The position numbers were made by a program, and so were the translations under genes. From IMG/VR virus record IMGVR_UViG_3300021091_000124, positions 1 through 49,335 of that record: a DNA stretch of 49,335 nt. The stretch is one strand, 5' to 3'. Shown here in pieces: positions 1,705-47,215 of this stretch. The DNA is from a virus. The first letter of the stretch is position 1. Every line of letters begins with the position of its first letter. The notes below the pieces were generated by a model that saw only the letters and a program-made list of their open reading frames with translations, searched no databases and was not told where the DNA came from.

Positions 1705-4635
1705 ATGAGTGAGCAAGTATTTAAATCACCAGGGTTTTTTGAAAGAGAAATAGAAATTCAATCAAAACCACCCAAAAAAGAGCCCAATTCGTCTCCAGTC
1801 GGTATTATCGGTTCAGCAGAAAAAGGTCCAGCTTTTGTACCCATAACTTTAAACTCAATTAACGACTACACCCAAATTTTCGGCAACATTCACCGTGACA
1901 AAATCGCAGGTCACGCTGTCGCAGAATTTTTTAACTCAAAAACAGCCCAAGGCGAAGGCTCAATTCAATTCATCAGAACACTAGGCGCCGAAGATGATAC
2001 TGCAGGCTTTAAATTAACTGAAAGTTCTTCAAAAGGTGGCGTTCAATTTTTATGTGCTGATCATAATCAATCAACTGACGATAAATTTATTAACGGTATG
2101 TTTGCATTCAATTTAGATATTCCTAGTACAGGAAATATTAAATTGGTGCGTGCTGTTTTCTTTTTACATAAAAACTGTGCATTAAGTATCACATCAGGCG
2201 ATAATGCTACAGCTGCTGGTGAGTTTACAATTAATCTTACAACAACTGATATATCAATTTCACAACGAAGTGTAACTGCATCATTAGATCCTGCTGCTAA
2301 TAATTATATTGCAAAAGTGATGAATACAGATCCTTATTCTTTTGAAGAATATGGTTATTTACTATATTTACATTTCCCAATTGATATTGATTTATTAAAT
2401 AATATAAAAGCTGGAGGATTACCTATTTCAATTGTTAGACCGTTGGGTGCAGATAATAAATTGGCGTATGGTGATTTTCAGACATCTTTTAAAACACCTA
2501 GAACTTCAAAGTTTATTAGTCAACCTTTTGGTTCAAAAGAATATGATTTGTTTCATTTTGAAGCAATTGATGATGGTTCATATGCTGCGGGTAAATATAA
2601 AATTAGTATTAGCAATTTGAGAGCATCAACTGATGTTAATTATAAATTTGGGACATTTAATGTTGAATTACGTGATTTAAATGATACAGATGAAGATGCA
2701 AACGTTTTAGAATCATATGCAAATTGTTCTTTAGATCCATCATCCCCCAATTATATTGGTAAATTAATCGGCGATCATAAAACATATTATAATTTTAAAG
2801 CTGTGTCTGATGAAAGAAGACTGTATACTGACGGTGAAAACCCTAATCAATCATCTCGCATTCGTATTGTAATGTCAGATGATGTTAAAAACGGCGAAAT
2901 CCCTGAAGAATCATTGCCTTTCGGCTTTAGAGGTTTACCTTCACTTAAAACAAAAACAGATTTATTAACAAAAGACAATTCAAATGCATTCAATGATTAT
3001 ATTATTCCTCCTTTACCTTATCGTTTCAAGTTAACAACTGGCGAATTGATTAAAGGTGAAGAACATAAAGTGTATATCGGTAAAAAAACATCATCACAAA
3101 TTGTTTCAACAAGTTTATATTGGGGTTTAATGAACTTTAATATCGACAAGAAAGAAACAGCAAATAATCGAGCAACATCAGGTGAGAAGATTAATAAAAT
3201 TGTAGAAAATTATACAAAATTGATGGCTGTTAATTCTGATGTTTTAAATGCTGTTGATTCAAAAGAAGCTGATGATTTTAATAATCATAAGTTTAGTTTA
3301 GCTCGTGTTGCTTTTCCTGTTTCATATACAACAACAGCTGTTGAAAATTTGAACAATTCAGTAATAAAAGCTTTTGAAGAAGTTGTATATATTAGAAATG
3401 CAGATTATTTTAAAGCTAATTATGAAATTAATCAAACAAATCTAGGAAGCAAACAAAATAGAATTACATTAGCGACAGTGTTATCAGAGAATAAAGAAAA
3501 GTTTAATAAGTATTCAGTTATGGCCAAGTTTACAGCCCCGATGTTTGGTGGGTTTGATGGTTTAAATATTTTTGATAAAGATAGTATGAACATGAATGAT
3601 CGATCATCGAGTACTGAAGATTTTACAGAAGACGGTGGTGTTGCGGGTAAGGCTGGTGAATCAGGTTATTTAAGTGGTTTGAGTGATACGAGTGTTTCGC
3701 CATATATGCAGGGGACAAATGAGACCAATAATATTATTTCATCTTATTTAACAGCGACAGATATTATGCTTGAGCCTGCGACTGCCAATGTGCATGTTGT
3801 GGTGGTGCCTGGTATTCGTGATCGTATAATTACAAGTTATGTTGCTTCTAAGGTTGAAACATATGGTAAGGCGATTTATTTGATGGATATTCCTAGTTAT
3901 GACAGGAATGGTATTAGATTATATGATGATGTATCTGATGCAGGTAAAAAGCCTGATGTTTCAATGACAATTTCCAAGTTATCATCTCGTAATTTTGATA
4001 ATAGTTATGTTGCGACATATTTCCCAGATGTCTTATTTGATGATGTGTCTGATCCTGTGGCAGGTGTTGCAAAACGTGTTATAAAGTGTCCTTCTTCAAT
4101 TGTTGCATTGGGTGCTTTAGCTAAAAGCGAGGGAACACGTGCAATTCAACCATGGTTTGCCCCAGCGGGTTTTGCTAATGGTGCAAATCAACGTGTTAAA
4201 GGTGTTACAGTTCGTTTAAGGGCTGATGATCGTGATGATTTATATGAAGCTCGTATTAATCCTATTGCAACATTCCCATCAAATCAATATGTGATTTTTG
4301 GTCAAAAGACATTACAAGTAGCAAATACAGCTTTAACACGTGTTAATGTTAGACGTTTAATGATTGCAATTAAACGCGGCGTGGAAAGATCAGCGCAAGC
4401 TTTATTATTTCAACAAAATACAGCAGCAACTCGTGACAGTTTCGTCGCATTTGTTAATGCATTTTTATCAAATATTCAAACCAACAGCGGCATTGAAAAT
4501 TATCGAGTAATCGTGACACCTGATCCTGAAGACGGTAATGTTTTAAACGGCAGAATTATTATTGTTCCAACTCGAGTTGTTGAATTCATTGCAATGGACT
4601 TTATTGTAACAAACAGCGGCGTATCATTTACTTAA
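1705..4635 (+). CDS. Tail sheath protein A (gp18-like)
   Basis: 976 residues against 659 in T4 gp18. The N-terminus (SPGFFEREIEI, then VGIIGSAEKGPAFVPITLNS) is the classic sheath start with the N-terminal linker arm. The C-terminal sheath domain is clear: GGFDGLNIFDKD, VVVVPGIRDRIITSYV, NSYVATYFPDV, QPWFAPAGFANG, YVIFGQKTLQ and NVRRLMIAIKRGVE. The middle of the protein is expanded with surface-type beta domains. A strong Shine-Dalgarno (AAAGGAG) precedes the ATG. It is the first of three paralogs here; sheath subunits polymerise around the tube and contract on infection. The first ~350 bases use C-rich codons and the rest G/T-rich codons. Confidence 0.95.
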   Translation: MSEQVFKSPGFFEREIEIQSKPPKKEPNSSPVGIIGSAEKGPAFVPITLNSINDYTQIFGNIHRDKIAGHAVAEFFNSKTAQGEGSIQFIRTLGAEDDTAGFKLTESSSKGGVQFLCADHNQSTDDKFINGMFAFNLDIPSTGNIKLVRAVFFLHKNCALSITSGDNATAAGEFTINLTTTDISISQRSVTASLDPAANNYIAKVMNTDPYSFEEYGYLLYLHFPIDIDLLNNIKAGGLPISIVRPLGADNKLAYGDFQTSFKTPRTSKFISQPFGSKEYDLFHFEAIDDGSYAAGKYKISISNLRASTDVNYKFGTFNVELRDLNDTDEDANVLESYANCSLDPSSPNYIGKLIGDHKTYYNFKAVSDERRLYTDGENPNQSSRIRIVMSDDVKNGEIPEESLPFGFRGLPSLKTKTDLLTKDNSNAFNDYIIPPLPYRFKLTTGELIKGEEHKVYIGKKTSSQIVSTSLYWGLMNFNIDKKETANNRATSGEKINKIVENYTKLMAVNSDVLNAVDSKEADDFNNHKFSLARVAFPVSYTTTAVENLNNSVIKAFEEVVYIRNADYFKANYEINQTNLGSKQNRITLATVLSENKEKFNKYSVMAKFTAPMFGGFDGLNIFDKDSMNMNDRSSSTEDFTEDGGVAGKAGESGYLSGLSDTSVSPYMQGTNETNNIISSYLTATDIMLEPATANVHVVVVPGIRDRIITSYVASKVETYGKAIYLMDIPSYDRNGIRLYDDVSDAGKKPDVSMTISKLSSRNFDNSYVATYFPDVLFDDVSDPVAGVAKRVIKCPSSIVALGALAKSEGTRAIQPWFAPAGFANGANQRVKGVTVRLRADDRDDLYEARINPIATFPSNQYVIFGQKTLQVANTALTRVNVRRLMIAIKRGVERSAQALLFQQNTAATRDSFVAFVNAFLSNIQTNSGIENYRVIVTPDPEDGNVLNGRIIIVPTRVVEFIAMDFIVTNSGVSFT

Positions 4636-29954: not shown

Positions 29955-31172
29955 ATGGCCGCACCCAAAAAGAAAATAAGCCAGGATTTACAGCCTGATC
30001 TAATCACTGATGACTTTACTAGTGATCTCATTAAATCTCTAAATAAAGAACGTGGTATGCGTATTGCATACAATCTCTCATCAGATGAATCACCTACACA
30101 CGTCAAACGTTGGATTAGCACAGGCTCAATTCAACTTGACTATATTATTTCAAATCGTAAAAATGGCGGTCTTCCAGAAGGTCGTATTATCGAAATCTTC
30201 GGTCCACCATCAATTGGTAAATCACATATCGCCTCTCAGATTGCTAAATCAACTCAAAGGGCAGGTGGTATTGTTGTTTATATTGATACAGAAAACGCTG
30301 TTAGTATTGAAAATCTTAAAACTTTAGGTGTCGATATCTCAAAGCGCTTTGTCTATGTCGATACACACTGCACAGAAGAAGTCTTTAGCATCGCTGAAAG
30401 CACGATCATGAAATCTAAAGCTATGCAAAAAGATGTACCTGTAACAATTATCTGGGACTCAGTTGCAGCAACATCACCTAAAGCTGAATTGGCAGGTGAA
30501 TACGATAAAGATAGTATCGGTCTTCAAGCTCGAGCCATTTCAAAAGGTATGAGAAAAATTACAGGTGTCATCGCTAATCAGAATATTCTCTTTGTGTGTC
30601 TTAATCAAGTAAGAACAAAGATGGGTGTAATGTATGGCGATCCTTCAACAACACCGGGCGGAGTCGCAATTCCTTTCCATTCTAGTGTTAGAATTAAATT
30701 AGGCGCAGGTAGCCCGATTGAGGGTGCTGATAAGGAGCCAATTGGTATAAATGTATCAGCTAAAATAATCAAAAATAAGGTTTCAGCGCCATTCAGAAAA
30801 GCTGATTTTCAGATTTTGTTTGGCAAAGGTATTTTTGAGCATGAGGAGATTTTTGATAATTTACGTAAGTTAGGTGAGTTTGAGTACAATGGTAAGAAGG
30901 TGTGTATTGATGGGGCAGGAGCGTGGAAGAGTTTGGTGGTGACGACGATGAGTGGTGCTATGGAGATTGAGAAGAAGTTTTATAAGGCGGATTTTGACAA
31001 GATTATGGTAGATCCTTTGTATAAAGAGTATGTTGACGCAGCTATTGATCGTGCTTATACAAAGAGTTCGACTGATGTGATGGTTGAAGATATTGATCCT
31101 GATTCATATATAGAGAATGAGGCAGCAGCGATGTCTTTGGTGGAGAATGAGTATGGAATAGGGGAAGATTGA
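29955..31172 (+). CDS. uvsX: RecA-like recombinase UvsX
   Basis: 405 residues. Walker A GPPSIGKSH (about residues 83-91), the catalytic-Glu strand IVVYIDTENAVS, Walker B VTIIWDSVAATSP, and the RecA signature ILFVCLNQVRTKMGVMYGDP with the following TPGGVAIPFHSS loop are all present. T4 UvsX is 391 residues. It forms filaments on ssDNA for strand exchange and recombination-dependent replication. UvsY is not seen in the window. The stop TGA overlaps the next ATG by one base (TGATG). The last third, from about 30,820, changes abruptly to G-rich, C-poor codons. Confidence 0.9.
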   Translation: MAAPKKKISQDLQPDLITDDFTSDLIKSLNKERGMRIAYNLSSDESPTHVKRWISTGSIQLDYIISNRKNGGLPEGRIIEIFGPPSIGKSHIASQIAKSTQRAGGIVVYIDTENAVSIENLKTLGVDISKRFVYVDTHCTEEVFSIAESTIMKSKAMQKDVPVTIIWDSVAATSPKAELAGEYDKDSIGLQARAISKGMRKITGVIANQNILFVCLNQVRTKMGVMYGDPSTTPGGVAIPFHSSVRIKLGAGSPIEGADKEPIGINVSAKIIKNKVSAPFRKADFQILFGKGIFEHEEIFDNLRKLGEFEYNGKKVCIDGAGAWKSLVVTTMSGAMEIEKKFYKADFDKIMVDPLYKEYVDAAIDRAYTKSSTDVMVEDIDPDSYIENEAAAMSLVENEYGIGED

Positions 31173-34164: not shown

Positions 34165-35307
34165 ATGAATTATCAAGGTATAGAAATTGATGCACAATAC
34201 GATAGTAATCTCAATGAACAAGCATATTCATTACTCAAAGATTATTATATGTTAGAAGGTGAAACAACCCCTCAAATGAGCTACGCTCGAGCAGCTTTAG
34301 CTTTTTGTCAAAACGATTTGCAATTAGCTCAAAGAATTTACGAATATGCTGCAAAAAACTGGTTCATGTTTTCTTCACCTATTTTATCTAACGCCAAAAC
34401 AGCTGACGGTCAAAATTCCAAAGGCTTACCCATCAGCTGTTTTTTAAGCTATGTCGATGATAGTCTTGAAGGATTAATGGATCACAGCAACGAATTACGT
34501 TGGATGTCAGTCAAAGGCGGTGGAGTCGGAGGACATTGGTCTGCTGTGAGAGCAAATAGTGAAATTTCACCCGGGCCTATCCCTTTCCTAAAAACTGTTG
34601 ACGCTGATATGACAGCTTATCGTCAAGGGAAAACACGAAAAGGCAGTTACGCTGCATACATTGATATTTCACACCCAGACGTTGTTGAATTTTTAAACAT
34701 TCGTGTTCCAACAGGCGGTGATAGTCATCGTAAATGTTTTAATTTAAATAACGCTATTAATATTACAGATGATTTTATGCAAGCTGTAATTGATGATCGA
34801 GATTGGCAATTAATTGATCCAAAAACAAAAGGTGTACGTGATACAATTGGGGCCAGAGATTTGTGGCAAAGAATTCTAGAAGTTCGTTTTCGTACGGGTG
34901 AACCTTATTTAAATTTTATTGATGAGGCGAATAGAAAATTGCCACAATATCAACAAGAAAAAGGTTTAAAGATACATGGTAGCAATTTGTGTATAACTGG
35001 TGATTCTTTATTAACAGTTATGATTGATAATCAAATCAAAGAAATGAATATTAAAGACGTTATTGCAGAGTTTGAAGAAAACAAAGACATTTATGTATTA
35101 TCATATAATATTGATAAGAAAGTAAATGAATTTCAAAAAGTGTTAGAAGGTCAATTGATGTCAGAAAGTGCTGAATTGTTGGAAATTGAGGATGATGAAA
35201 CAGGATTTAAATTAATTTGTACACCTGAGCATTTGATCTTTACAAAAAACAGAGGCTACGTGATGGCCAAAGACCTTACCGAACAAGATGAATTGTTAAT
35301 AAAATAA
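34165..35307 (+). CDS. nrdA: Ribonucleotide reductase large subunit NrdA, N-terminal part fused to N-half of a split intein
   Basis: 380 residues. Residues 1-275 are NrdA without an ATP-cone: SSPILSNAK, KGLPISCFLSYVDDS (C92, equivalent to E. coli C225), VKGGGVGGHW and GSYAAYIDISHPDVVEF. NrdA sequence stops at GSNL. Residue 276 is Cys1 of an intein N-fragment (105 residues): CITGDSLLTV (block A) and LICTPEHLIFTKNRGYVMAK (block B with the Thr-x-x-His motif), then a stop codon. The rest of the intein and the rest of NrdA come from the gene at 36104. The break falls at SNL-C, where E. coli NrdA has catalytic Cys439. The N-fragment closely resembles the NrdA-2 split intein known from marine metagenomes. 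Confidence 0.92.
   Translation: MNYQGIEIDAQYDSNLNEQAYSLLKDYYMLEGETTPQMSYARAALAFCQNDLQLAQRIYEYAAKNWFMFSSPILSNAKTADGQNSKGLPISCFLSYVDDSLEGLMDHSNELRWMSVKGGGVGGHWSAVRANSEISPGPIPFLKTVDADMTAYRQGKTRKGSYAAYIDISHPDVVEFLNIRVPTGGDSHRKCFNLNNAINITDDFMQAVIDDRDWQLIDPKTKGVRDTIGARDLWQRILEVRFRTGEPYLNFIDEANRKLPQYQQEKGLKIHGSNLCITGDSLLTVMIDNQIKEMNIKDVIAEFEENKDIYVLSYNIDKKVNEFQKVLEGQLMSESAELLEIEDDETGFKLICTPEHLIFTKNRGYVMAKDLTEQDELLIK
34990..35304 (+). other. Split intein N-fragment (IntN), 105 residues
   Basis: Begins at Cys1 (34990-34992) with the block A pattern C-x-T-G-D-S, and contains block B TPEH. It ends at the stop codon of the gene. Pairs with the C-fragment at 36104-36205. Confidence 0.9.
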
Positions 35308-35352
35308 TGAAATTCACTCAGTCATAATCCTATATAAAAAAAAGGAAAACGA

Positions 35353-36114
35353 ATGAGTGAAAAATTTATTATTTATATTCATACTTTTAAATCAACAAAT
35401 AAATCATATATTGGCTATACATCATTAACTATTGAAAAAAGATTGCATAAACATATATTAAATTGTAAAGCAGGTTTTGAATCAAAGTTTTATAGAGCCA
35501 TAAAAAAATATGGAGTATCTGATATTGAAAGTTCTATTTTGCATGAATGTAAAAGTAAAGAAGAAGCGAAAGAAAAAGAAATCGAAATGATAAAAAATTT
35601 TGACACCTTTGAAAATGGTCTAAATGAAACAATAGGGGGTGATGGAGGATGGATTGTTCCTGATGCTAAACTGGAAAGATGGAAGAAAACAAAAAGTGAA
35701 AGAATGTCAGGAGAGAGAAATCCGACATATTCAGGCGTAAAGGATATTGAAATTTTAGAAAAAGCATATGATTATTTTCTCAAGACAAATCATATGCCTG
35801 TTCGAAAATGGCAAATGTTTAGTAGCGAAGAATATGATTTTCCTAAGTCATATTCTAAATTTAGATTTAGAGAATACGGTTCAGGTTTAAAAGGTTTTAA
35901 AAACGCTATGAAAGAAATATATTCTCTAAACGATAATGATTTCAAATATATCATAACTCAAGAACATATATCAAGACTATCCAATTCAACAAAGGGAAAG
36001 CATTGGTATATTAACATACATACACAACAAAGAAGACAATGTTTTGAGAAAGACATTGATAGAAAAGATTGGTTAACAGCCCATGAGATTAAAGGATTAA
36101 AAAATGGCAATTAA
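35353..36114 (+). CDS. GIY-YIG homing endonuclease located in the break of the split nrdA
   Basis: 253 residues behind AAAGGAAAA. The N-terminal nuclease domain has IIYIH...SYIGYT (GIY-YIG pair, residues 6-23), a conserved Arg (R30) in KRLHKH, and a metal-binding Glu candidate near E76, followed by NETIGGDGG. A NUMOD3-like DNA-binding motif MSGERNPTYSG lies at about 119-129, and a further KGKHWYIN-type motif near the C-terminus. Such enzymes cut intein-less alleles and spread the invaded locus by repair. It is free-standing, not fused to the intein. Its last 11 bases overlap the start of the second nrdA gene, so translation of the two is probably coupled. Confidence 0.9.
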   Translation: MSEKFIIYIHTFKSTNKSYIGYTSLTIEKRLHKHILNCKAGFESKFYRAIKKYGVSDIESSILHECKSKEEAKEKEIEMIKNFDTFENGLNETIGGDGGWIVPDAKLERWKKTKSERMSGERNPTYSGVKDIEILEKAYDYFLKTNHMPVRKWQMFSSEEYDFPKSYSKFRFREYGSGLKGFKNAMKEIYSLNDNDFKYIITQEHISRLSNSTKGKHWYINIHTQQRRQCFEKDIDRKDWLTAHEIKGLKNGN

Positions 36115-36205
36115 AATAAAGAAAATTGAAAATACACAAGCTGTATATGATATTAAAGTAGAAAATAATCAAAATTTCTTTGCAAATAATGTGTTAATTC
36201 ATAAT
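36104..36205 (+). other. Split intein C-fragment (IntC), 34 residues
   Basis: Its own ATG followed by intein blocks F and G ending VLIHN, with Cys as first C-extein residue at 36206-36208. Length and sequence match the C-part of NrdA-2-type split inteins. Confidence 0.9.
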
Positions 36206-37165
36206 TGCAACGAGATTCATCTCACAACTAACAAAGATCGAAGCGCAGTTTGCTGTCTCTCTTCTCTCAATCTTGAAAAATTCGAAGAATGGAAAAACAC
36301 AACAATCGTTGAAGATTGCATCACATTTCTGGATAACGTACTTCAATACTTCATTGATCATGCAACTGATCACGGTTTACGTAAAGCACGTTTTAGTGCA
36401 ATTCAAGAACGTTCCTTAGGCTTAGGCGCTATGGGCTTTCATGCATATTTGCAATCTAAAAATATTCCCTGGGAAAGTGCTTTAGCTAAAGCCCAAAACA
36501 TGAAAATATTCAGTCTAATTAAAGAACGAGCAACTAAACAAACACAAGAACTTGCAGTCATAAGAGGTGAAGCACCTGACGCATCAGGTTACGGCGTTAG
36601 AAATGCTCATTTATTGGCAATTGCACCCAATGCTAACAGTTCAATTATCGCAGGTACATCACCCTCAATAGAACCTTATAAAAGCAATGCTTATACACAT
36701 CGAACACGAGCTGGCGCTCATTTAGTAAAGAATCGTTATTTGGAACATTTATTAAATGAAAAAGCTTTACAACAAAATGCTGATGATCGTGAAAGTTGGT
36801 TAAATGACATATGGACTTCAGTTATTACCAATGACGGATCAGTTCAACATTTAGAGTGTTTAAATGCATGGGAAAAGAATGTCTTTAAAACAGCTTTTGA
36901 AATTGATCAGAGATGGTTAATTGATCATGCTGCTGATCGACAGGAATTTATTTGTCAAGGGCAGAGTGTTAATTTATTCTTCCCAGCAGGTACAGACAAA
37001 GCGATTGTGAATGCTGTGCATTTAAGAGCGTGGAAGAATAAATTAAAAGGTCTATATTATCTTCGCACGAATGCAGGGGCAAAAGCTGAAAATGTCAGTG
37101 AAAAAGTCAGGAGTGATAAATTAAAGGATTTTAAAGACACTGAATGTTTAAGTTGTCAAGGTTAA
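36104..37165 (+). CDS. nrdA: C-half of the split intein fused to C-terminal part of NrdA
   Basis: 353 residues. Residues 1-34 are IntC: AVYDIKVENNQNFFANNVLIHN, blocks F and G with penultimate His33 and terminal Asn34. Residue 35, Cys, is the +1 nucleophile and, after splicing, the NrdA thiyl-radical cysteine (SNLC-NEI, compare E. coli SNLC439LE441I), with E37 as the partner Glu. Then come AVCCLSSLNL (redox partner, like E. coli C462), APNANSSIIAGTSPSIEP, GLYYLRT (radical-relay Tyr pair 318-319) and a C-terminal CLSC tail that accepts electrons from thioredoxin or glutaredoxin. Spliced NrdA would be about 594 residues. AAAGGA upstream; the start lies inside the endonuclease gene. Confidence 0.92.
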   Translation: MAIKIKKIENTQAVYDIKVENNQNFFANNVLIHNCNEIHLTTNKDRSAVCCLSSLNLEKFEEWKNTTIVEDCITFLDNVLQYFIDHATDHGLRKARFSAIQERSLGLGAMGFHAYLQSKNIPWESALAKAQNMKIFSLIKERATKQTQELAVIRGEAPDASGYGVRNAHLLAIAPNANSSIIAGTSPSIEPYKSNAYTHRTRAGAHLVKNRYLEHLLNEKALQQNADDRESWLNDIWTSVITNDGSVQHLECLNAWEKNVFKTAFEIDQRWLIDHAADRQEFICQGQSVNLFFPAGTDKAIVNAVHLRAWKNKLKGLYYLRTNAGAKAENVSEKVRSDKLKDFKDTECLSCQG

Positions 37166-37192
37166 TATATATATTTATATATTTATAAAAAA
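37154..37192 (+). repeat. Direct repeat, left copy (overlaps nrdA stop)
   Basis: TGTCAAG then GTTAATATATATATTTATA (37154-37179), followed by TATATTTATAAAAAA (37178-37192). The first 26 bases recur at 38425-38450 with one mismatch. Together the two copies bracket the lipoprotein gene. Confidence 0.7.
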
Positions 37193-37194
37193 CA

Positions 37195-37323
37195 GAACGA
37201 CCACCTTTTCAGGTCTTTAATCCACCTGAACATTTTAGTCATGAAATTAAAAAAAATATTGAATATTCAAACGATTTTGATTATGAAGTTGAATGTCGCA
37301 CAATAAATAAAACAAACATTTAA
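37195..37323 (+). pseudogene. Possible gene remnant without start codon
   Basis: An open stretch of 42 codons has protein-like composition (ERPPFQVFNPPEHFSHEIKK, then a Tyr/Asp/Glu-rich part) and ends at TAA 37321. It has no start codon and is preceded by a stop four codons earlier. It may be the tail end of a gene cut off when the lipoprotein cassette arrived, or chance. I cannot assign a family. Confidence 0.3.
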
Positions 37324-37337
37324 AAAAGGTTTAAACC

Positions 37338-38300
37338 ATGAAAAAAATATTATTAATTTTAAATTTCATCTTTTTTTTAAGTAATTGTTCCGATATTGCT
37401 TATGATGATGTTAATTATACATTTGACGATCCTAATCTAGAAAAATCTAGTATTGAGAATAGATATTTTAAACTATCTTCAAATTTACATTGCAAAAATC
37501 CTTGTCAAATTTATGTTGAGCACTCTTTAACTAATTTAGTAAGCGTGGAATACTTTGCTGACAATTGGAAATTAGGTACTATTTATAACATTGATGAAAA
37601 TTTTGCAATTTCATATCAATTTAATACTTTAGGTCGACGTTTAATTAAGGCAATTGCTTACGATTCTAACGGTCTCGAAATAGCTAGACATTCAAACTGG
37701 TTTCAAATCTACAAAGATGATATTAGTAAAGAAATTGACTATCCTGAAGAAAGCAATTCGACTTTGTCTATTAATAATTCTTTTTTAGACGTACCTTATT
37801 TTTATCAATACAATAATTTATATTATCCTAGTGCAACTTGTCAAAATACCTCAATCGCTATGGTATTAAAAAATTATGGCTGGTCAGGCAAACCTGATAA
37901 TATTACAGCAGTTTATGGTAAAAACTACACTCAAAGTCCAGCAGGTTTAGCTGACGTTTTTAATACGCTTTCCTCTCGAGATGGTCTCAGTAAAAAAATT
38001 ATACCGATTACGAATGGAACGTTATCGGGTTTAAAACAAGAGTTAGATAAAGGTCAACCTGTAATTATTCATGGTTATTTCACTAGGGCTGGACATGTGG
38101 TAGTAGTAGTAGGTTATGATGCTGATGGTTATTGGGTGAATGATCCTGCAGGTGTTTGGGTTCAAACTTTTATGGGAGGATACGGTTATAATTCAGCAGG
38201 AAAAGCAACTTACTATAAAAAACAAACTTTCGAAGCTGCAGTCGCATCAGATGGTTATTCTTATTTACCTTTATGGTATCATGTGATTAGAAATAAGTGA
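37338..38300 (+). CDS. Lipoprotein with papain-like C39-type peptidase domain
   Basis: 320 residues behind AAAAAAGGTTT. Signal peptide MKKILLILNFIFFLSNC with lipobox-like L14-S15-N16-C17 (Asn at -1 is unusual). Residues about 45-130 form a beta-rich domain. Residues 148-300 match the C39_2-like peptidase fold: DVPYFYQYNN, then SATCQNTSIAMVL with candidate catalytic C168, GHVVVVVGYD with H253, and YWVNDP with N268/D269. If exported it would sit in the outer membrane of the infected cell. Possible roles are superinfection exclusion, surface remodelling or wall/protein cleavage; substrate unknown. It is bracketed by direct repeats and is unrelated to the nucleotide genes around it, so it looks like an inserted accessory (moron) gene. 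Confidence 0.75.
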   Translation: MKKILLILNFIFFLSNCSDIAYDDVNYTFDDPNLEKSSIENRYFKLSSNLHCKNPCQIYVEHSLTNLVSVEYFADNWKLGTIYNIDENFAISYQFNTLGRRLIKAIAYDSNGLEIARHSNWFQIYKDDISKEIDYPEESNSTLSINNSFLDVPYFYQYNNLYYPSATCQNTSIAMVLKNYGWSGKPDNITAVYGKNYTQSPAGLADVFNTLSSRDGLSKKIIPITNGTLSGLKQELDKGQPVIIHGYFTRAGHVVVVVGYDADGYWVNDPAGVWVQTFMGGYGYNSAGKATYYKKQTFEAAVASDGYSYLPLWYHVIRNK

Positions 38301-38331
38301 ATATAACATACGTGTATATTTATAAAAAAAG

Positions 38332-38347
38332 AGTTTAAATTTAAACT
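38332..38347. repeat. 16-bp perfect palindrome AGTTTAAATTTAAACT
   Basis: Lies just after TATATTTATAAAAAA (38315-38329), 31 bases after the lipoprotein stop. The left half matches the leader (AAAGAGTTTAAATT) before the paralog at 39553, so it may be a decayed leader, an operator or a weak terminator. Confidence 0.4.
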
Positions 38348-38424
38348 TTGCAAGAGATCAATTAAGATTTTATAATTAATATTATTAATAAAAATGTGAG
38401 AGAATCAAAAAGCGTTTAACAAAC

Positions 38425-38455
38425 TGTCAATGTTAATATATATATTTATAAAAAA
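38425..38455 (+). repeat. Direct repeat, right copy
   Basis: TGTCAAT then GTTAATATATATATTTATA (38425-38450), one mismatch from 37154-37179, continuing TATAAAAAAGG into the leader of the next gene. The left copy covers the last nrdA codons and stop, so this copy looks like a duplicated piece of the nrdA end. Confidence 0.7.
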
Positions 38456-38465
38456 GGTGTTTAAA

Positions 38466-39524
38466 TTGTTAATAAATGAAAATAAATTAAAGGGTTTAAT
38501 TCGACAAGTTATTAATGAAATGGCTTTAAAACATGGTGGTATTCATCCTGTAAGTGGTATTCTGAATCCTGAAATGGATATTACGGCAGCTGAGTCTGGA
38601 AAGATAAGAAGAAATCGTTTTCCATCTAATGCACCTGAAAAGTTTGAGCAGAAGTTAAAGTGGATATTAGGTAATTACCCAGGTTGCACTATTCATTCAT
38701 GCATGTTTCCTTCAAATTTTGATATGCATCGATTTATTCTGAATCATATTGACGCAGGTACAGATCAATCACCGTTAGAATCCAGCACAATTTCAGATAT
38801 TATTACAGCCACAGATCAAGGTATTGATAGAGTAATGGATATTACTGATCGTGTTGATGACATTATTCATGAACTTTCACAAGAATTTGATGTAAATGAC
38901 CCAACAGTTCAAAAACTTTTTAACGTATTGCAAGAATCAAATCAACTAGTTAGTGATGAAAAAAATGGAGTGTTGATATATTTCGGAGCACATACAAATG
39001 ATATGGCTGATCCACCTACACCTTATAACATAATGCATCAACTTGCTGAAACAGGTATATTTAATGAGGATGAGGATTTTTTTCAACTGACTGACATATT
39101 AAGTCAATGTACAGCATTTGATGGAACAAATGGTTTTGATGATTATGGATTTTTTGAAGGTCGTGCTCAGTCTCGATCACGTATGCAGCAATCATCGTAT
39201 AATTTAATCTTTCAATCAGCCGGGTGGTTAAATCCTGATATTCGACTTAATAAATACGGGAAAGAAATAATTGATAAAACAACAGGCGAGTCTAAAAGAG
39301 GTCATATTATGAGTAAAAATGAAACAAATCCTGACTCTTTAGGCTCCAGTAATCCATATGATATTACAAAAAGATGTTTGGCGCCAAAATATAAAAATGA
39401 CAGAAATTTAATTAAAAAGATGGTATCTTTAGGTTTTGTGGAAACATTAATTAGACTTATTGAAAAATTTTGGAATATTTTTAGAGGAAGAGTTATATTG
39501 ACATTTAGTATGGAACCACTATAA
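38466..39524 (+). CDS. Unknown protein, paralog 1, with putative capsid-targeting N-terminus
   Basis: 352 residues from TTG 38466, chosen because AAAAAAGGTG precedes it and because the next gene uses the same TTG arrangement; an ATG at 38430 in frame lies inside the AT-rich leader. The N-terminal helix LLINENKLKGLIRQVINE then MA ends in I-x-E, the T4-type prohead protease pattern. Internal landmarks shared with the next gene: CTIHSCMFPSN, NGVLIYFGAHTND, PPTPYNIMHQL, DGTNGF...FEGRAQ, GWLNPD, SSNPYDITKRCLAPKYKND and FRGRVILTFS. No known fold is recognised. Likely a virion-internal protein, by inference. Confidence 0.65.
   Translation: MLINENKLKGLIRQVINEMALKHGGIHPVSGILNPEMDITAAESGKIRRNRFPSNAPEKFEQKLKWILGNYPGCTIHSCMFPSNFDMHRFILNHIDAGTDQSPLESSTISDIITATDQGIDRVMDITDRVDDIIHELSQEFDVNDPTVQKLFNVLQESNQLVSDEKNGVLIYFGAHTNDMADPPTPYNIMHQLAETGIFNEDEDFFQLTDILSQCTAFDGTNGFDDYGFFEGRAQSRSRMQQSSYNLIFQSAGWLNPDIRLNKYGKEIIDKTTGESKRGHIMSKNETNPDSLGSSNPYDITKRCLAPKYKNDRNLIKKMVSLGFVETLIRLIEKFWNIFRGRVILTFSMEPL
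39369..39403 (+). repeat. 35-base exact repeat inside paralog 1
   Basis: Starts AAAAGATGTTTGGCGCCAAA and continues to GACAG; identical to 40327-40361 in paralog 2. Encodes the RCLAPKYKND motif and contains the palindrome TTTGGCGCCAAA. Shows recent duplication or gene conversion. Confidence 0.8.
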
Positions 39525-39552
39525 TTATATTTAGAATCAAAAAGAGTTTAAA

Positions 39553-40479
39553 TTGTTATTGAATGAAAATAAATTAAAAAATTTAATTAAAAAAGTTATA
39601 CAGGAAATGGCTCATTCATACGGAGGCATTCATTATGTAGGTGGAGATATAAATCAAAAATACGATATTCAACCTCATGAACGCAATCGCACAATGACTA
39701 ATATTCCTAATGAAAAATTTTCAAAGCAACTTGATTGGAGATTAAAAAATTATCAAGGTTGTAATATTCATACATTTATGTTTCCTTCAAATCTTGCAAC
39801 AAAAGCTATTTTGGTTGATAAACAAATAATTAATCGTTTTGATAGATTTATCGATATTACAGATAATATAGAAGAGATTATTTCAATTTTATCCGAAGCA
39901 TTAGATATCTACAACCCATCAGTTCAAAAGTTGTTTAACACTTTACGACAATCAACAGATTTAGCAGCAGATGACGCAAACGGAGTATTAATATATTTAG
40001 GCTCACACACAGAAACAGATACAGATCCACCCACACCTTTTAATATGTTACATCAAATTGTAGATTCTGCTAGTTTTGAAGATATTTCATTTTCATTTGA
40101 CGAAATATATCAAAAAATAAAAAGAATTACGACATCAGATGGCACTAATGCTTTAGCTGCAGGTGTTTTTGAAGGTAAAGCGCAAGCAGTAAGTCAAGCA
40201 ACCGACGTAATTTTTAATCAAATTATAATGGCACTTGGTTGGTTAGATCCTGATACATGCACAATAATAAGTACAAATCCTACCAATTCTGATTTAATCG
40301 GTTCCAGCAATCCATATGATATTGTTAAAAGATGTTTGGCGCCAAAATATAAAAATGACAGTGCATTTATCAATAAATTAATCTCAATAAATTTTGAAAA
40401 ATTATTATGTCAATGTGTAAAAGACTTTTGGGATATATTCAGAGGAAGAGTTATATTAACATTTAGCGGACAAGAATAA
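39553..40479 (+). CDS. Unknown protein, paralog 2, with putative capsid-targeting N-terminus
   Basis: 308 residues from TTG 39553 with AAAAAGAG upstream. The N-terminus LLNENKLKNLIKKVIQE then MA repeats the amphipathic helix and I-x-E site of paralog 1. It shares CNIHTFMFPSN, NGVLIYLGSHTET, PPTPFNMLHQI, DGTNALAAGVFEGKAQ, GWLDPD, SSNPYDIVKRCLAPKYKND and FRGRVILTFS. It is shorter because two loops of paralog 1 (near residues 95-115 and 265-290) are missing. Tandem duplicate of the preceding gene, 28 bases apart. Function unknown; an internal virion protein is inferred from the N-terminus. Confidence 0.65.
   Translation: MLLNENKLKNLIKKVIQEMAHSYGGIHYVGGDINQKYDIQPHERNRTMTNIPNEKFSKQLDWRLKNYQGCNIHTFMFPSNLATKAILVDKQIINRFDRFIDITDNIEEIISILSEALDIYNPSVQKLFNTLRQSTDLAADDANGVLIYLGSHTETDTDPPTPFNMLHQIVDSASFEDISFSFDEIYQKIKRITTSDGTNALAAGVFEGKAQAVSQATDVIFNQIIMALGWLDPDTCTIISTNPTNSDLIGSSNPYDIVKRCLAPKYKNDSAFINKLISINFEKLLCQCVKDFWDIFRGRVILTFSGQE
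40327..40361 (+). repeat. 35-base exact repeat inside paralog 2
   Basis: Second copy of the 39369-39403 sequence, at the same position in the tandem paralog. Confidence 0.8.
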
Positions 40480-40559: not shown

Positions 40560-41525
40560 ATGAGTTTAACTGAAAGTAATATTACTTACAAGCCTTTTCA
40601 ATATCCCTGGGCCATGGAAATGGCTGAATCACACGAAAAAATTCATTGGGGTAGTTGGGAAGCCAAATTACAAGAAGATGTCAATCAATGGAAGAGCGGC
40701 AAAATTTCCCAATCTGAAAAAAATCATATCACGCAAATTTTGCGTCTCTTCACCCAATCTGACGTTGCCGTCGGTGGCAATTACTGCGATCTCTTTATCC
40801 CTAAATTCAAGAATAACGAGATACGCTCTATGCTACTTTCTTTCGCAAACCGTGAAGGTACCCATCAACGTAGCTACGCCCTTCTAAATGATACGCTGGG
40901 TTTACCAGAAGAAGAGTATTCAGCTTTTCTATCATATCATCAATTAAAAGAAAAAATTGAATTTATGCAAAAAGCCGATGTCTCAACCAAAAAAGGTCTT
41001 GCCTGCGCCCTGGCCCAATCAGCCTGCAACGAAGGTATGTCACTCTTCAGCGCTTTTGTCATGCTCCTTAATTATCAACGCTACGGTAAAATGCGCGGTA
41101 TGTGTGAGATTGTGGAATGGAGTATTCGTGATGAAACCATGCACGTACAAGGCATGACACAACTCTTCAGGGAATATGTCAAAGAAAACCCACGAGTTGT
41201 CAATGATGAACTAAAATCCGATATCTACAAAATGTTCACCAACGCTGTTGATTTAGAAGATAAAGTTATCGATTTAGCCTACGAAATGGGTGAAACACAA
41301 GGATTGTCCTCGACTGAGGTTAAACAATACATTAGATATATTGCTGATCGTCGTTTAATTCAGTTAGGCTTAAAACCTGTATTTGCAATTAAAAATAATC
41401 CTTTGACATGGCTTGACTGGATTATTAATGGAGATAGCTTTAAAAACTTTTTCGAAGGTGTTGTCACAGATTATAACGCTGACGGTATGTCAGGACAAAA
41501 TTGGGGTTGGGGTGAATTACTGTGA
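40560..41525 (+). CDS. nrdB: Ribonucleotide reductase small subunit NrdB
   Basis: 321 residues, ribosome site AAGAGAA. Diiron ligands and the radical Tyr are in place: D68, E99 and H102 in REGTHQRSY with Y106 as the radical tyrosine (E. coli Y122 pattern ExxHxxxY), E158 in CNEGMSLF, E192 and H195 in RDETMH. It supplies the tyrosyl radical to NrdA, whose gene lies about 3.4 kb upstream, with the lipoprotein gene and two unknown paralogs between. It ends one base from the end of the convergent minus-strand gene, with no obvious terminator between. Confidence 0.93.
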   Translation: MSLTESNITYKPFQYPWAMEMAESHEKIHWGSWEAKLQEDVNQWKSGKISQSEKNHITQILRLFTQSDVAVGGNYCDLFIPKFKNNEIRSMLLSFANREGTHQRSYALLNDTLGLPEEEYSAFLSYHQLKEKIEFMQKADVSTKKGLACALAQSACNEGMSLFSAFVMLLNYQRYGKMRGMCEIVEWSIRDETMHVQGMTQLFREYVKENPRVVNDELKSDIYKMFTNAVDLEDKVIDLAYEMGETQGLSSTEVKQYIRYIADRRLIQLGLKPVFAIKNNPLTWLDWIINGDSFKNFFEGVVTDYNADGMSGQNWGWGELL

Positions 41526-45969: not shown

Positions 45970-46623
45970 ATGAAAGAGAAAGAAATGAATTGTCTTTATA
46001 ACATTTCTCCGAATTTTAGAGTGATGGAATTACGTCAAGAGCCTGTAATAATTAATATTACGACGATTGATGAAGAAACAGCAGCTGAATTTCGTGAGGC
46101 TATGATGATTGCGCATAATTCTGGACAAGGTGTGATCCCTATTATGATTGATAGTTATGGTGGTAATGTGCATTCTTTATTATCTATGATCGATATTATT
46201 CAAAGTGCCAAAATACCTGTTGCAACCATCGTGATTGGTAAAGCTTTAGGTAGCGCAGGTATATTAGCTGGTGTAGGGACAAAAGGATATCGATTTATGT
46301 GTCGAAATTCTTCAATTATGTTGAATAATGTAAGTAAAGAAAGTTGGGGTAAAACTGGTGAGTTTAAGCCTGATAGTCGTGAAGTTGAAAGATTACATAA
46401 GTTGGTGTGTCAGTTATTAGATAGGAGTTGTAATAAAGATGATGGATATTTTGAGTTACTTATTAAAGATAAAGGTGGGTGTGATTGGTATTTTGAAGTT
46501 GATGATGCTATTGATTATGGCTTAATTGATCATGTGGGTATCCCATGGTTTGAAGTTAACATACAACAAGAATATGAATTTGATGGCATTGTCATGAAGG
46601 AGAATATCGATGAAATTGATTAG
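45970..46623 (+). CDS. ClpP-like protein lacking catalytic Ser and His
   Basis: 217 residues; ATG 45985 is an alternative start with a better purine-rich upstream sequence. The ClpP fold is clear: IPIMIDSYGGNVHSLLSMID, IPVATIVIGKALGSAGI, GTKGYRFMCRNSSIMLNN and a final DWYFEVDDAIDYGLIDHVG. Where ClpP has GQAAS-MGA this protein has GKALG-SAG, so Gly94 replaces the nucleophile (a Ser lies one residue later). Where ClpP has VMIH it has IMLN (Asn119). It is therefore probably inactive, comparable with the ClpR subunits of cyanobacteria and plastids. It overlaps the active paralog by 14 bases, suggesting a mixed complex. Confidence 0.8.
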   Translation: MKEKEMNCLYNISPNFRVMELRQEPVIINITTIDEETAAEFREAMMIAHNSGQGVIPIMIDSYGGNVHSLLSMIDIIQSAKIPVATIVIGKALGSAGILAGVGTKGYRFMCRNSSIMLNNVSKESWGKTGEFKPDSREVERLHKLVCQLLDRSCNKDDGYFELLIKDKGGCDWYFEVDDAIDYGLIDHVGIPWFEVNIQQEYEFDGIVMKENIDEID

Positions 46624-47215
46624 AAGTATTTCTAGAAAGATTAAAGAAGTTGAACTCAGGATTAATCCTGTGATTATTTGCGTTAATGATTTTGATGAAG
46701 AAAATGCAAATCAATTTATCAAAGAAATGGGTTTAGCGCATAATACAGGACAACCAATTATCCCAGTGGTAATTGATAGTTATGGTGGTGATGTTTATGC
46801 TTTGAGTAGAATGATTGATGCTATTAAAAATGCAACATTACCTGTGGCTACTATTGTTGAAGGTAAAGCAATGAGCTGCGGTGCAATTTTAATGACATAT
46901 GGTACAAAAGGTTACCGATATTGTAACGAAGATGCAACAGTGATGATGCATGATATCAGTTCAGGGCAGTTTGGTAAAATTGAAGAATTGCGTAGTTCTT
47001 TGCAAGAAACTGATAGATTACAAAATAAGATTTTAGCTGAGGTTGATCGAAATTGTAATCAGGAAAAAGGTTTTTTTGATCGAACAATTCATAGTAAGGG
47101 CCGAGCAGATTGGTTTATGAATCCTGTTGACGCTTTGGCAATTGGTATGTGTGATAAATTGGGTAATCCCAAATTAAAGTTAAACATTTCAGCTAAGATT
47201 GATTTTAAACATTAA
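46610..47215 (+). CDS. ClpP-like serine protease with intact catalytic triad
   Basis: 201 residues, GAAGGAG upstream and overlapping the previous gene. ClpP motifs: IPVVIDSYGGDVYALSRMID, EGKAMSCGAIL with nucleophile S89, ATVMMHDIS with H114, and GRADWFMNPVDALAIGMCD with D167. The length equals that of ClpP. No N-terminal hydrophobic loops for docking a known AAA+ partner can be judged by eye. It could act in degrading host or phage proteins, in modulating host ClpXP, or in head maturation. T4 itself uses gp21 for head maturation, which is not seen here. Confidence 0.85.
   Translation: MKLIRSISRKIKEVELRINPVIICVNDFDEENANQFIKEMGLAHNTGQPIIPVVIDSYGGDVYALSRMIDAIKNATLPVATIVEGKAMSCGAILMTYGTKGYRYCNEDATVMMHDISSGQFGKIEELRSSLQETDRLQNKILAEVDRNCNQEKGFFDRTIHSKGRADWFMNPVDALAIGMCDKLGNPKLKLNISAKIDFKH

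What the first reader, a model, noticed from the sequence alone, without database searches (positions are those of the whole stretch)
34165..37165. Fractured nrdA: split intein plus free-standing GIY-YIG endonuclease in the break
Seen: NrdA sequence ends at SNL, followed by intein blocks A and B and a stop codon. A GIY-YIG gene follows, then a gene starting with intein blocks F and G and continuing NrdA from Cys. Known: split inteins of this NrdA-2 type and 'fractured gene' layouts with homing endonucleases in the gap are described from phage-rich metagenomes. Inference: the +1 Cys used for splicing is also the catalytic thiyl-radical Cys (E. coli C439), so no active reductase exists until the two polypeptides trans-splice. 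The invader sits where loss by imprecise deletion would be lethal. The endonuclease stop overlaps the IntC start, tying their expression.
Basis: partly seen in the sequence, partly recalled or inferred. Interest (0 to 1): 0.85.

Follow-up and report, generated by a model that had tools for sequence, protein, structure and literature searches.

The report
Split intein plus endonuclease fracturing nrdA
In this phage the gene for the DNA-precursor enzyme ribonucleotide reductase is cut in two at its catalytic cysteine by a split intein with a homing-endonuclease gene in the gap, so the two protein halves probably have to be spliced together after translation; the layout is a known kind, but related phages here show the element jumping between alleles and later losing its endonuclease while staying split.

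Summary
nrdA (N half 34165-34989) runs into a 105-aa IntN and a stop. A GIY-YIG gene (35353-36114) follows and overlaps by 11 nt the start of a 34-aa IntC, which is fused to the C half of nrdA. The break is exactly before the residue equivalent to E. coli C439. Splicing residues and the reductase catalytic residues checked are present, and no other large-subunit gene is on the contig. The same layout occurs in independent assemblies, while dozens of related phages have an uninterrupted site. (1) Mobility is visible: the element is 96% identical between two phages whose nrdA is 83% identical, with a 48+38-nt conserved flanking tract; an occupied/empty pair is 100% identical 3' of the site and 99.5% far 5' of it, but 74% across the junction. 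(2) Relatives have lost or gutted the endonuclease yet remain split; one keeps about 40 nt of its 3' end, carrying the IntC ribosome-binding site. The organisation itself is known ('fractured genes', Dassa 2009; AceL NrdHF, PMC7891396). Trans-splicing and cleavage are inferred, not measured. Verdict: a real new member of a known kind, with unusually good evolutionary evidence.

The parts
34165..34989 (+). nrdA N-terminal half (N-extein, 275 aa, ends ...GSNL)
   Evidence: PF00317 and PF02867; NF006577; continuous with the C half in empty alleles
34990..35307 (+). IntN: N-terminal split-intein fragment, 105 aa (C1, TPEH block B), then stop
   Evidence: PF14890/TIGR01445; NrdJ-1 8ubs E=6e-16; fold match to 8ubs and Npu DnaE; stop conserved in the IntN relatives where it could be read
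35353..36114 (+). Free-standing GIY-YIG homing endonuclease, 253 aa
   Evidence: PF01541 1.2e-9; AF2 model matches I-TevI catalytic domain 1mk0 E=2e-4, TM 0.78; dN/dS ~0.1
36104..36205 (+). IntC: C-terminal split-intein fragment, 34 aa (ends VLIHN); start overlaps the endonuclease stop by 11 nt
   Evidence: TIGR01443 1.5e-5, above cut-off; His-Asn and +1 Cys invariant in 17 relatives
36206..37165 (+). nrdA C-terminal half (C-extein, 319 aa) beginning with the C439-equivalent Cys
   Evidence: PF02867; alignment to E. coli NrdA
34990..36205 (+). Whole inserted element, 1216 bp, absent without scar from empty alleles
34942..34989 (+). Left flank of apparent co-conversion tract (2 differences in 48 nt vs L005, against ~17% outside)
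36206..36243 (+). Right flank of apparent co-conversion tract (1 difference in 38 nt vs L005)
40560..41525 (+). nrdB, small subunit partner of the split NrdA
   Evidence: PF00268 6e-70

Best explanation
A composite mobile element, a split intein (IntN + IntC) with a GIY-YIG homing endonuclease gene between its halves, sits in nrdA of a contractile-tailed phage exactly in front of the catalytic Cys codon. Shown by sequence: the layout, intact intein and reductase residues, scarless empty alleles, element transfer between diverged alleles with short flanking tracts, and purifying selection on the endonuclease. Inferred: the endonuclease cuts intein-less nrdA in mixed infections; break repair copies the whole 1.2-kb element plus tens of bases of flank; the two polypeptides made from one operon associate through IntN/IntC and trans-splice to a 594-aa NrdA, which works with NrdB. 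When the endonuclease is lost the gene stays split, because only exact removal of the whole intein would restore an intact nrdA.
For: Layout and motifs. Catalytic residues N437, C439, E441, C462, Y730, Y731, C754, C759 conserved in the joined exteins. Empty alleles uninterrupted exactly at SNL|C. Element 51/1216 differences vs exteins 303/1782 between window and L005 (p=1e-29); dS 0.19-0.20 in the element vs ~1.0 in the exteins. Conserved flanks -48..+38 only (3/86 vs 300/1696 differences, p=2e-4, boundaries chosen from the data). L009 (occupied) vs L028 (empty): 518/518 nt identical 3' of +31 and 99.5% identical 5' of -400, but 73.8% at -91..+30; an occupied copy with the same junction (L008) is in the same metagenome as the empty L028. 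nrdA tree needs at least 4 occupied/empty changes. GIY dN/dS ~0.1-0.15 in the window's group. No other large subunit on 49-, 117- and 211-kb records. No intron found in the break.
Against: No splicing, cleavage or expression data. Patchy differences at -400..-275 in the L009/L028 pair mean general recombination also acts there. All contigs are fragments, so a second nrdA elsewhere in this phage, or host NrdA rescue, is not excluded. The endonuclease's recognition site is not identified; its linker (residues ~87-125) is modelled poorly and its overall fold only moderately (pTM 0.40).
Confidence: 0.9

Rival explanations
1. The halves do not need to be ligated: IntC is cleaved off, or the fragments simply associate, and NrdA works as a non-covalent two-piece enzyme, as in phage Aeh1.
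For: Aeh1 NrdA split by mobE is functional in two pieces (PMC2988022).
Against: All splicing residues (C1, TxxH, penultimate His, Asn, +1 Cys) are intact and conserved over 17-20 relatives; selection for both intein halves is hard to explain without splicing; the break lies between N437 and C439.
Confidence: 0.05
2. nrdA is a decaying pseudogene interrupted by junk; the phage uses the host's reductase.
For: Campylobacter phage Cpt10 nrdA is described as such a remnant (PMC3653736).
Against: Extein dN/dS <0.1 (N half 0.082/1.08, C half 0.069/0.99), intact catalytic residues, intact nrdB downstream, same open layout in several lineages.
Confidence: 0.03
3. The element spread by ordinary phage recombination; the GIY-YIG enzyme is a passenger that does not home to nrdA.
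For: Patchy differences at -400..-275 between L009 and L028 suggest ordinary recombination; other endonucleases occupy the gap in other lineages.
Against: The transferred tract is centred on the insertion site in two separate comparisons; the endonuclease is under purifying selection and keeps the same gap position in relatives.
Confidence: 0.12
4. Group I intron with an intronic endonuclease, or an assembly error.
For: Phage nrd genes often carry introns (PMC3653736).
Against: No Rfam intron match in the break; both edges are intein blocks in frame with the exteins; independent assemblies agree.
Confidence: 0.01

Closest known systems
Fractured genes with split inteins (Dassa et al. 2009, doi 10.1093/nar/gkp095; paper not held, seen through citing papers and my knowledge), incl. 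NrdA-2
   Same: Enzyme gene broken by a split intein with a free-standing endonuclease gene between the halves; phage-like metagenomes; nrdA among the hosts (PMC3653736 cites 7 intein-interrupted nrdA there).
   Different: Different sequence (~50% IntN identity to the NrdA-2-like L107/L041 group); I could not check which endonuclease, if any, the NrdA-2 locus carries.
AceL NrdHF split class 3 intein (PMC7891396)
   Same: RNR gene, fractured layout, GIY-YIG endonuclease in the gap, phage-like contig; trans-splicing shown in vitro.
   Different: Small-subunit gene nrdHF; class 3 intein with a 98/48 split; here nrdA and a 105/34 split beginning with Cys1 (class 1-like).
NrdJ-1 split intein (PDB 8ubs)
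   Same: Nearest solved intein by sequence (6e-16) and fold.
   Different: Host gene is a different reductase large subunit (nrdJ); ~36% identity over the fold alignment.
Phage Aeh1 mobE insertion in nrdA
   Same: Free-standing homing endonuclease splits nrdA in a phage.
   Different: No intein; the two NrdA polypeptides work without ligation.
LAGLIDADG inteins in phage nrdA (ICP1 gp203, PMC10448857; L067 here)
   Same: Intein in nrdA; in L067 at the identical SNL|C site.
   Different: One continuous reading frame with the endonuclease domain inside the intein; cis-splicing.

Membership tests
Split intein (trans-splicing), class 1-like | Cys/Ser1 at start of IntN and TxxH in block B | tested here: met
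   C1 and CTPEH in window; C1, T78 and H81 invariant in 20 relatives
Split intein (trans-splicing), class 1-like | C-terminal His-Asn followed by Cys/Ser/Thr +1 | tested here: met
   LIHN|C; H33, N34, C35 invariant in 17 relatives
Split intein (trans-splicing), class 1-like | Two separate polypeptides, IntN stop and IntC own start | tested here: met
   Stop 35305-35307, ATG 36104
Split intein (trans-splicing), class 1-like | Ligation of exteins in trans | not testable with these tools
   needs expression
Fractured gene organisation | Conserved enzyme gene broken by a split intein with a free-standing endonuclease ORF between | tested here: met
GIY-YIG homing endonuclease | GIY-YIG catalytic domain with conserved Tyr, Arg, Glu, Asn residues | tested here: met
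   PF01541 1.2e-9; Y8, Y19, G21, R30, H34, E76, N91 invariant; I-TevI fold. The first motif reads YIH, not GIY
GIY-YIG homing endonuclease | Cuts intein-less target and drives copying with co-conversion | tested here: inconclusive
   co-conversion-like tracts seen; cleavage not measured
NrdA-2 intein type | Sequence and insertion-site orthology to published NrdA-2 | tested here: inconclusive
   Published sequence not available in the tools; L107 matches my recollection of it nearly exactly, window IntN 53% identical to L107
Class I RNR large subunit | Active-site and radical-transfer residues | tested here: met
   N437, C439, E441, C462, Y730, Y731, C754, C759 aligned; C225 not aligned automatically, candidate Cys92 in PISCF

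The most novel reading that the evidence does not exclude
Natural split inteins of the NrdA-2 kind are the footprint of endonuclease homing: the whole split intein + endonuclease unit homes as one element, the endonuclease later erodes (L040, L107, possibly L137 and L149), and the gene stays permanently split with translation of IntC still using the endonuclease's relict 3' end, so every endonuclease-free split intein of this family descends from a fractured one.
Probability: 0.5. Interest if true: 0.55.

Novelty: new member of a known kind. Interest (0 to 1): 0.45.

Why it matters
How natural split inteins arise and persist is an open question, and they are valued as protein-ligation tools. 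This family gives occupied, empty, endonuclease-reduced and endonuclease-free alleles at one site, including an empty/occupied pair that is otherwise almost identical, so homing of a whole split intein and the 'stays split after endonuclease loss' idea become directly testable. It also supplies new candidate split inteins that act at an enzyme's active site.

Tried and rejected
Group I intron: no Rfam intron hit in the break (one search also none for L179/L177). T4-type late promoter before the endonuclease: TATAAATA is not enriched in the window (15 vs 10.8 expected) and none lies just upstream on the coding strand; dropped. Cellular origin: the single scan of bacterial and archaeal genomes gave only weak, mostly partial intein matches. 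PDB sequence search for the endonuclease found nothing meaningful, the fold search did. Dassa 2009 full text is not held. The automatic alignment placed E. coli C225 on G87, judged a local misalignment next to Cys92.

Full report
WHAT IS THERE. The window (a 49,335-base virus contig) carries nrdA in two pieces. The N half (34165-34989, 275 aa, ending GSNL) is followed in frame by a 105-aa intein N fragment and a stop; a 253-aa GIY-YIG gene follows (35353-36114); then a gene of 34 aa intein C fragment plus 319 aa of NrdA starting CNEIHL (36104-37165). The endonuclease stop lies 11 nt inside the IntC gene. Pfam and NCBIfam identify all parts. By sequence and fold the IntN is closest to the solved NrdJ-1 split intein, and the endonuclease's N-terminal domain to I-TevI. 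The inserted stretch is 1216 bp, not a multiple of three.

SITE AND CHEMISTRY. Alignment to E. coli NrdA (fetched) puts the +1 Cys on C439, with N437 the second-last residue of the N half and E441 the third residue of the C half; C462, Y730, Y731 and the C-terminal cysteines are also present. The intein residues needed for splicing are intact and invariant in relatives. Trans-splicing is therefore the best reading, but it is inferred.

NOT AN ARTEFACT, NOT A PSEUDOGENE. A contig from another metagenome repeats the locus at 100% protein identity (L006), and diverged contigs repeat the layout (L005, L008, L009, L041 and others). Extein dN/dS is below 0.1 and endonuclease dN/dS about 0.1-0.15 in the window's group. 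No other large-subunit gene is on the window or on the 117-kb and 211-kb relatives, though all are fragments.

MOBILITY. Most related phages retrieved have nrdA uninterrupted exactly at SNL|C. Window and L005 differ at 17% of extein sites but 4.2% of element sites, with the low-divergence tract reaching only ~48 nt left and ~38 nt right of the element. L009 (occupied) and L028 (empty) are identical over 518 nt 3' of +31 and 99.5% identical 5' of -400, but 74% identical at -91..+30, with further patchy differences at -400..-275. An occupied copy (L008) with the same junction as L009 is in the same metagenome as the empty L028. A tree of nrdA without the junction needs at least four changes between occupied and empty. 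This is what double-strand-break repair homing with flank co-conversion predicts (T4 precedent, PMC2988022). Cleavage was not measured, and the direction of transfer in each pair is inferred.

FATE OF THE ENDONUCLEASE. An IntN profile search found 52 viral loci; wherever the reading frame could be followed it stops right after IntN. L109-L119 mostly carry kindred GIY-YIG genes (L116 and L118 belong to another subgroup). L040 (=L120) has an in-frame internal deletion leaving 100 aa. L107 has only 41 nt between IntN stop and IntC start, and these match the 3' end of the lost endonuclease, including the putative IntC ribosome-binding site. L137 has no endonuclease; L149-L151 have a 120-aa remnant-like ORF. 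Other lineages hold other nucleases (GIY-YIG with NUMOD motifs, LEM-3-like GIY-YIG, phage endonuclease I-like). In most, the last gap ORF overlaps or ends close to the IntC start, consistent with translational coupling, which is inferred.

SAME SITE, OTHER TENANTS. L067 has a continuous LAGLIDADG intein at the identical site. A subgroup within L137-L152 carries kindred split inteins one codon further on, after the catalytic Cys.

COMPARISON. The organisation is that of the fractured genes of Dassa et al. 2009 (paper not held; cited in PMC3653736 and PMC7090010). The AceL NrdHF intein is an RNR case with a GIY-YIG endonuclease and demonstrated splicing (PMC7891396). NrdA-2 itself is matched only from memory, nearly exactly by L107. 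So this is a new member of a known kind. What seems less documented is the occupied/empty evidence for whole-element homing and the erosion series; I could not verify that no one has reported it.

Noticed in passing
L177:2029-7559 (Klebsiella phage KP13-7, OP617745.1): nrdA of a cultured jumbo phage appears broken three times: an HNH-like ORF insert after SCSQG, a related split intein with GIY-YIG at SNLC|C, and a second, different-looking split intein further on with another ORF between its halves. The middle pieces are annotated hypothetical.
   Followed up: partly
L178:2208-5855 (Yersinia phage TG1, NC_028820.1): A cultured T4-like phage has a fractured nrdA at the same SNL|C site, with a 'homing endonuclease' without a Pfam match between the halves and a 14-nt overlap with the IntC gene: a cultured relative.
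   Followed up: partly
L179:1199-3508 (sister contig of L005); window 29955-31172 is intact: uvsX/recA of the sister phage is split after ...TTPGG; the C half is fused in frame behind a Vsr/DUF559-type endonuclease ORF. No Rfam intron match.
   Followed up: partly
L137, L138, L141, L143-L152: Related split inteins inserted one codon downstream (after the C439-equivalent), so two adjacent insertion sites are used by one intein family.
   Followed up: partly
L067:3857-6871: Continuous LAGLIDADG intein at the identical nrdA site in a related phage.
   Followed up: yes
window 37186-40479: Between nrdA and nrdB a 214-aa gene of sister phages (L005:7215-7859) is reduced to a C-terminal relic and replaced by a C39-peptidase-like gene and two paralogous unknown genes.
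   Followed up: partly
window 45970-47215: Two tandem Clp-protease-family genes, followed by thyX.
   Followed up: no
window 1705-4635: Unusually long tail sheath protein (976 aa; the sheath-like region is in its C-terminal part).
   Followed up: no
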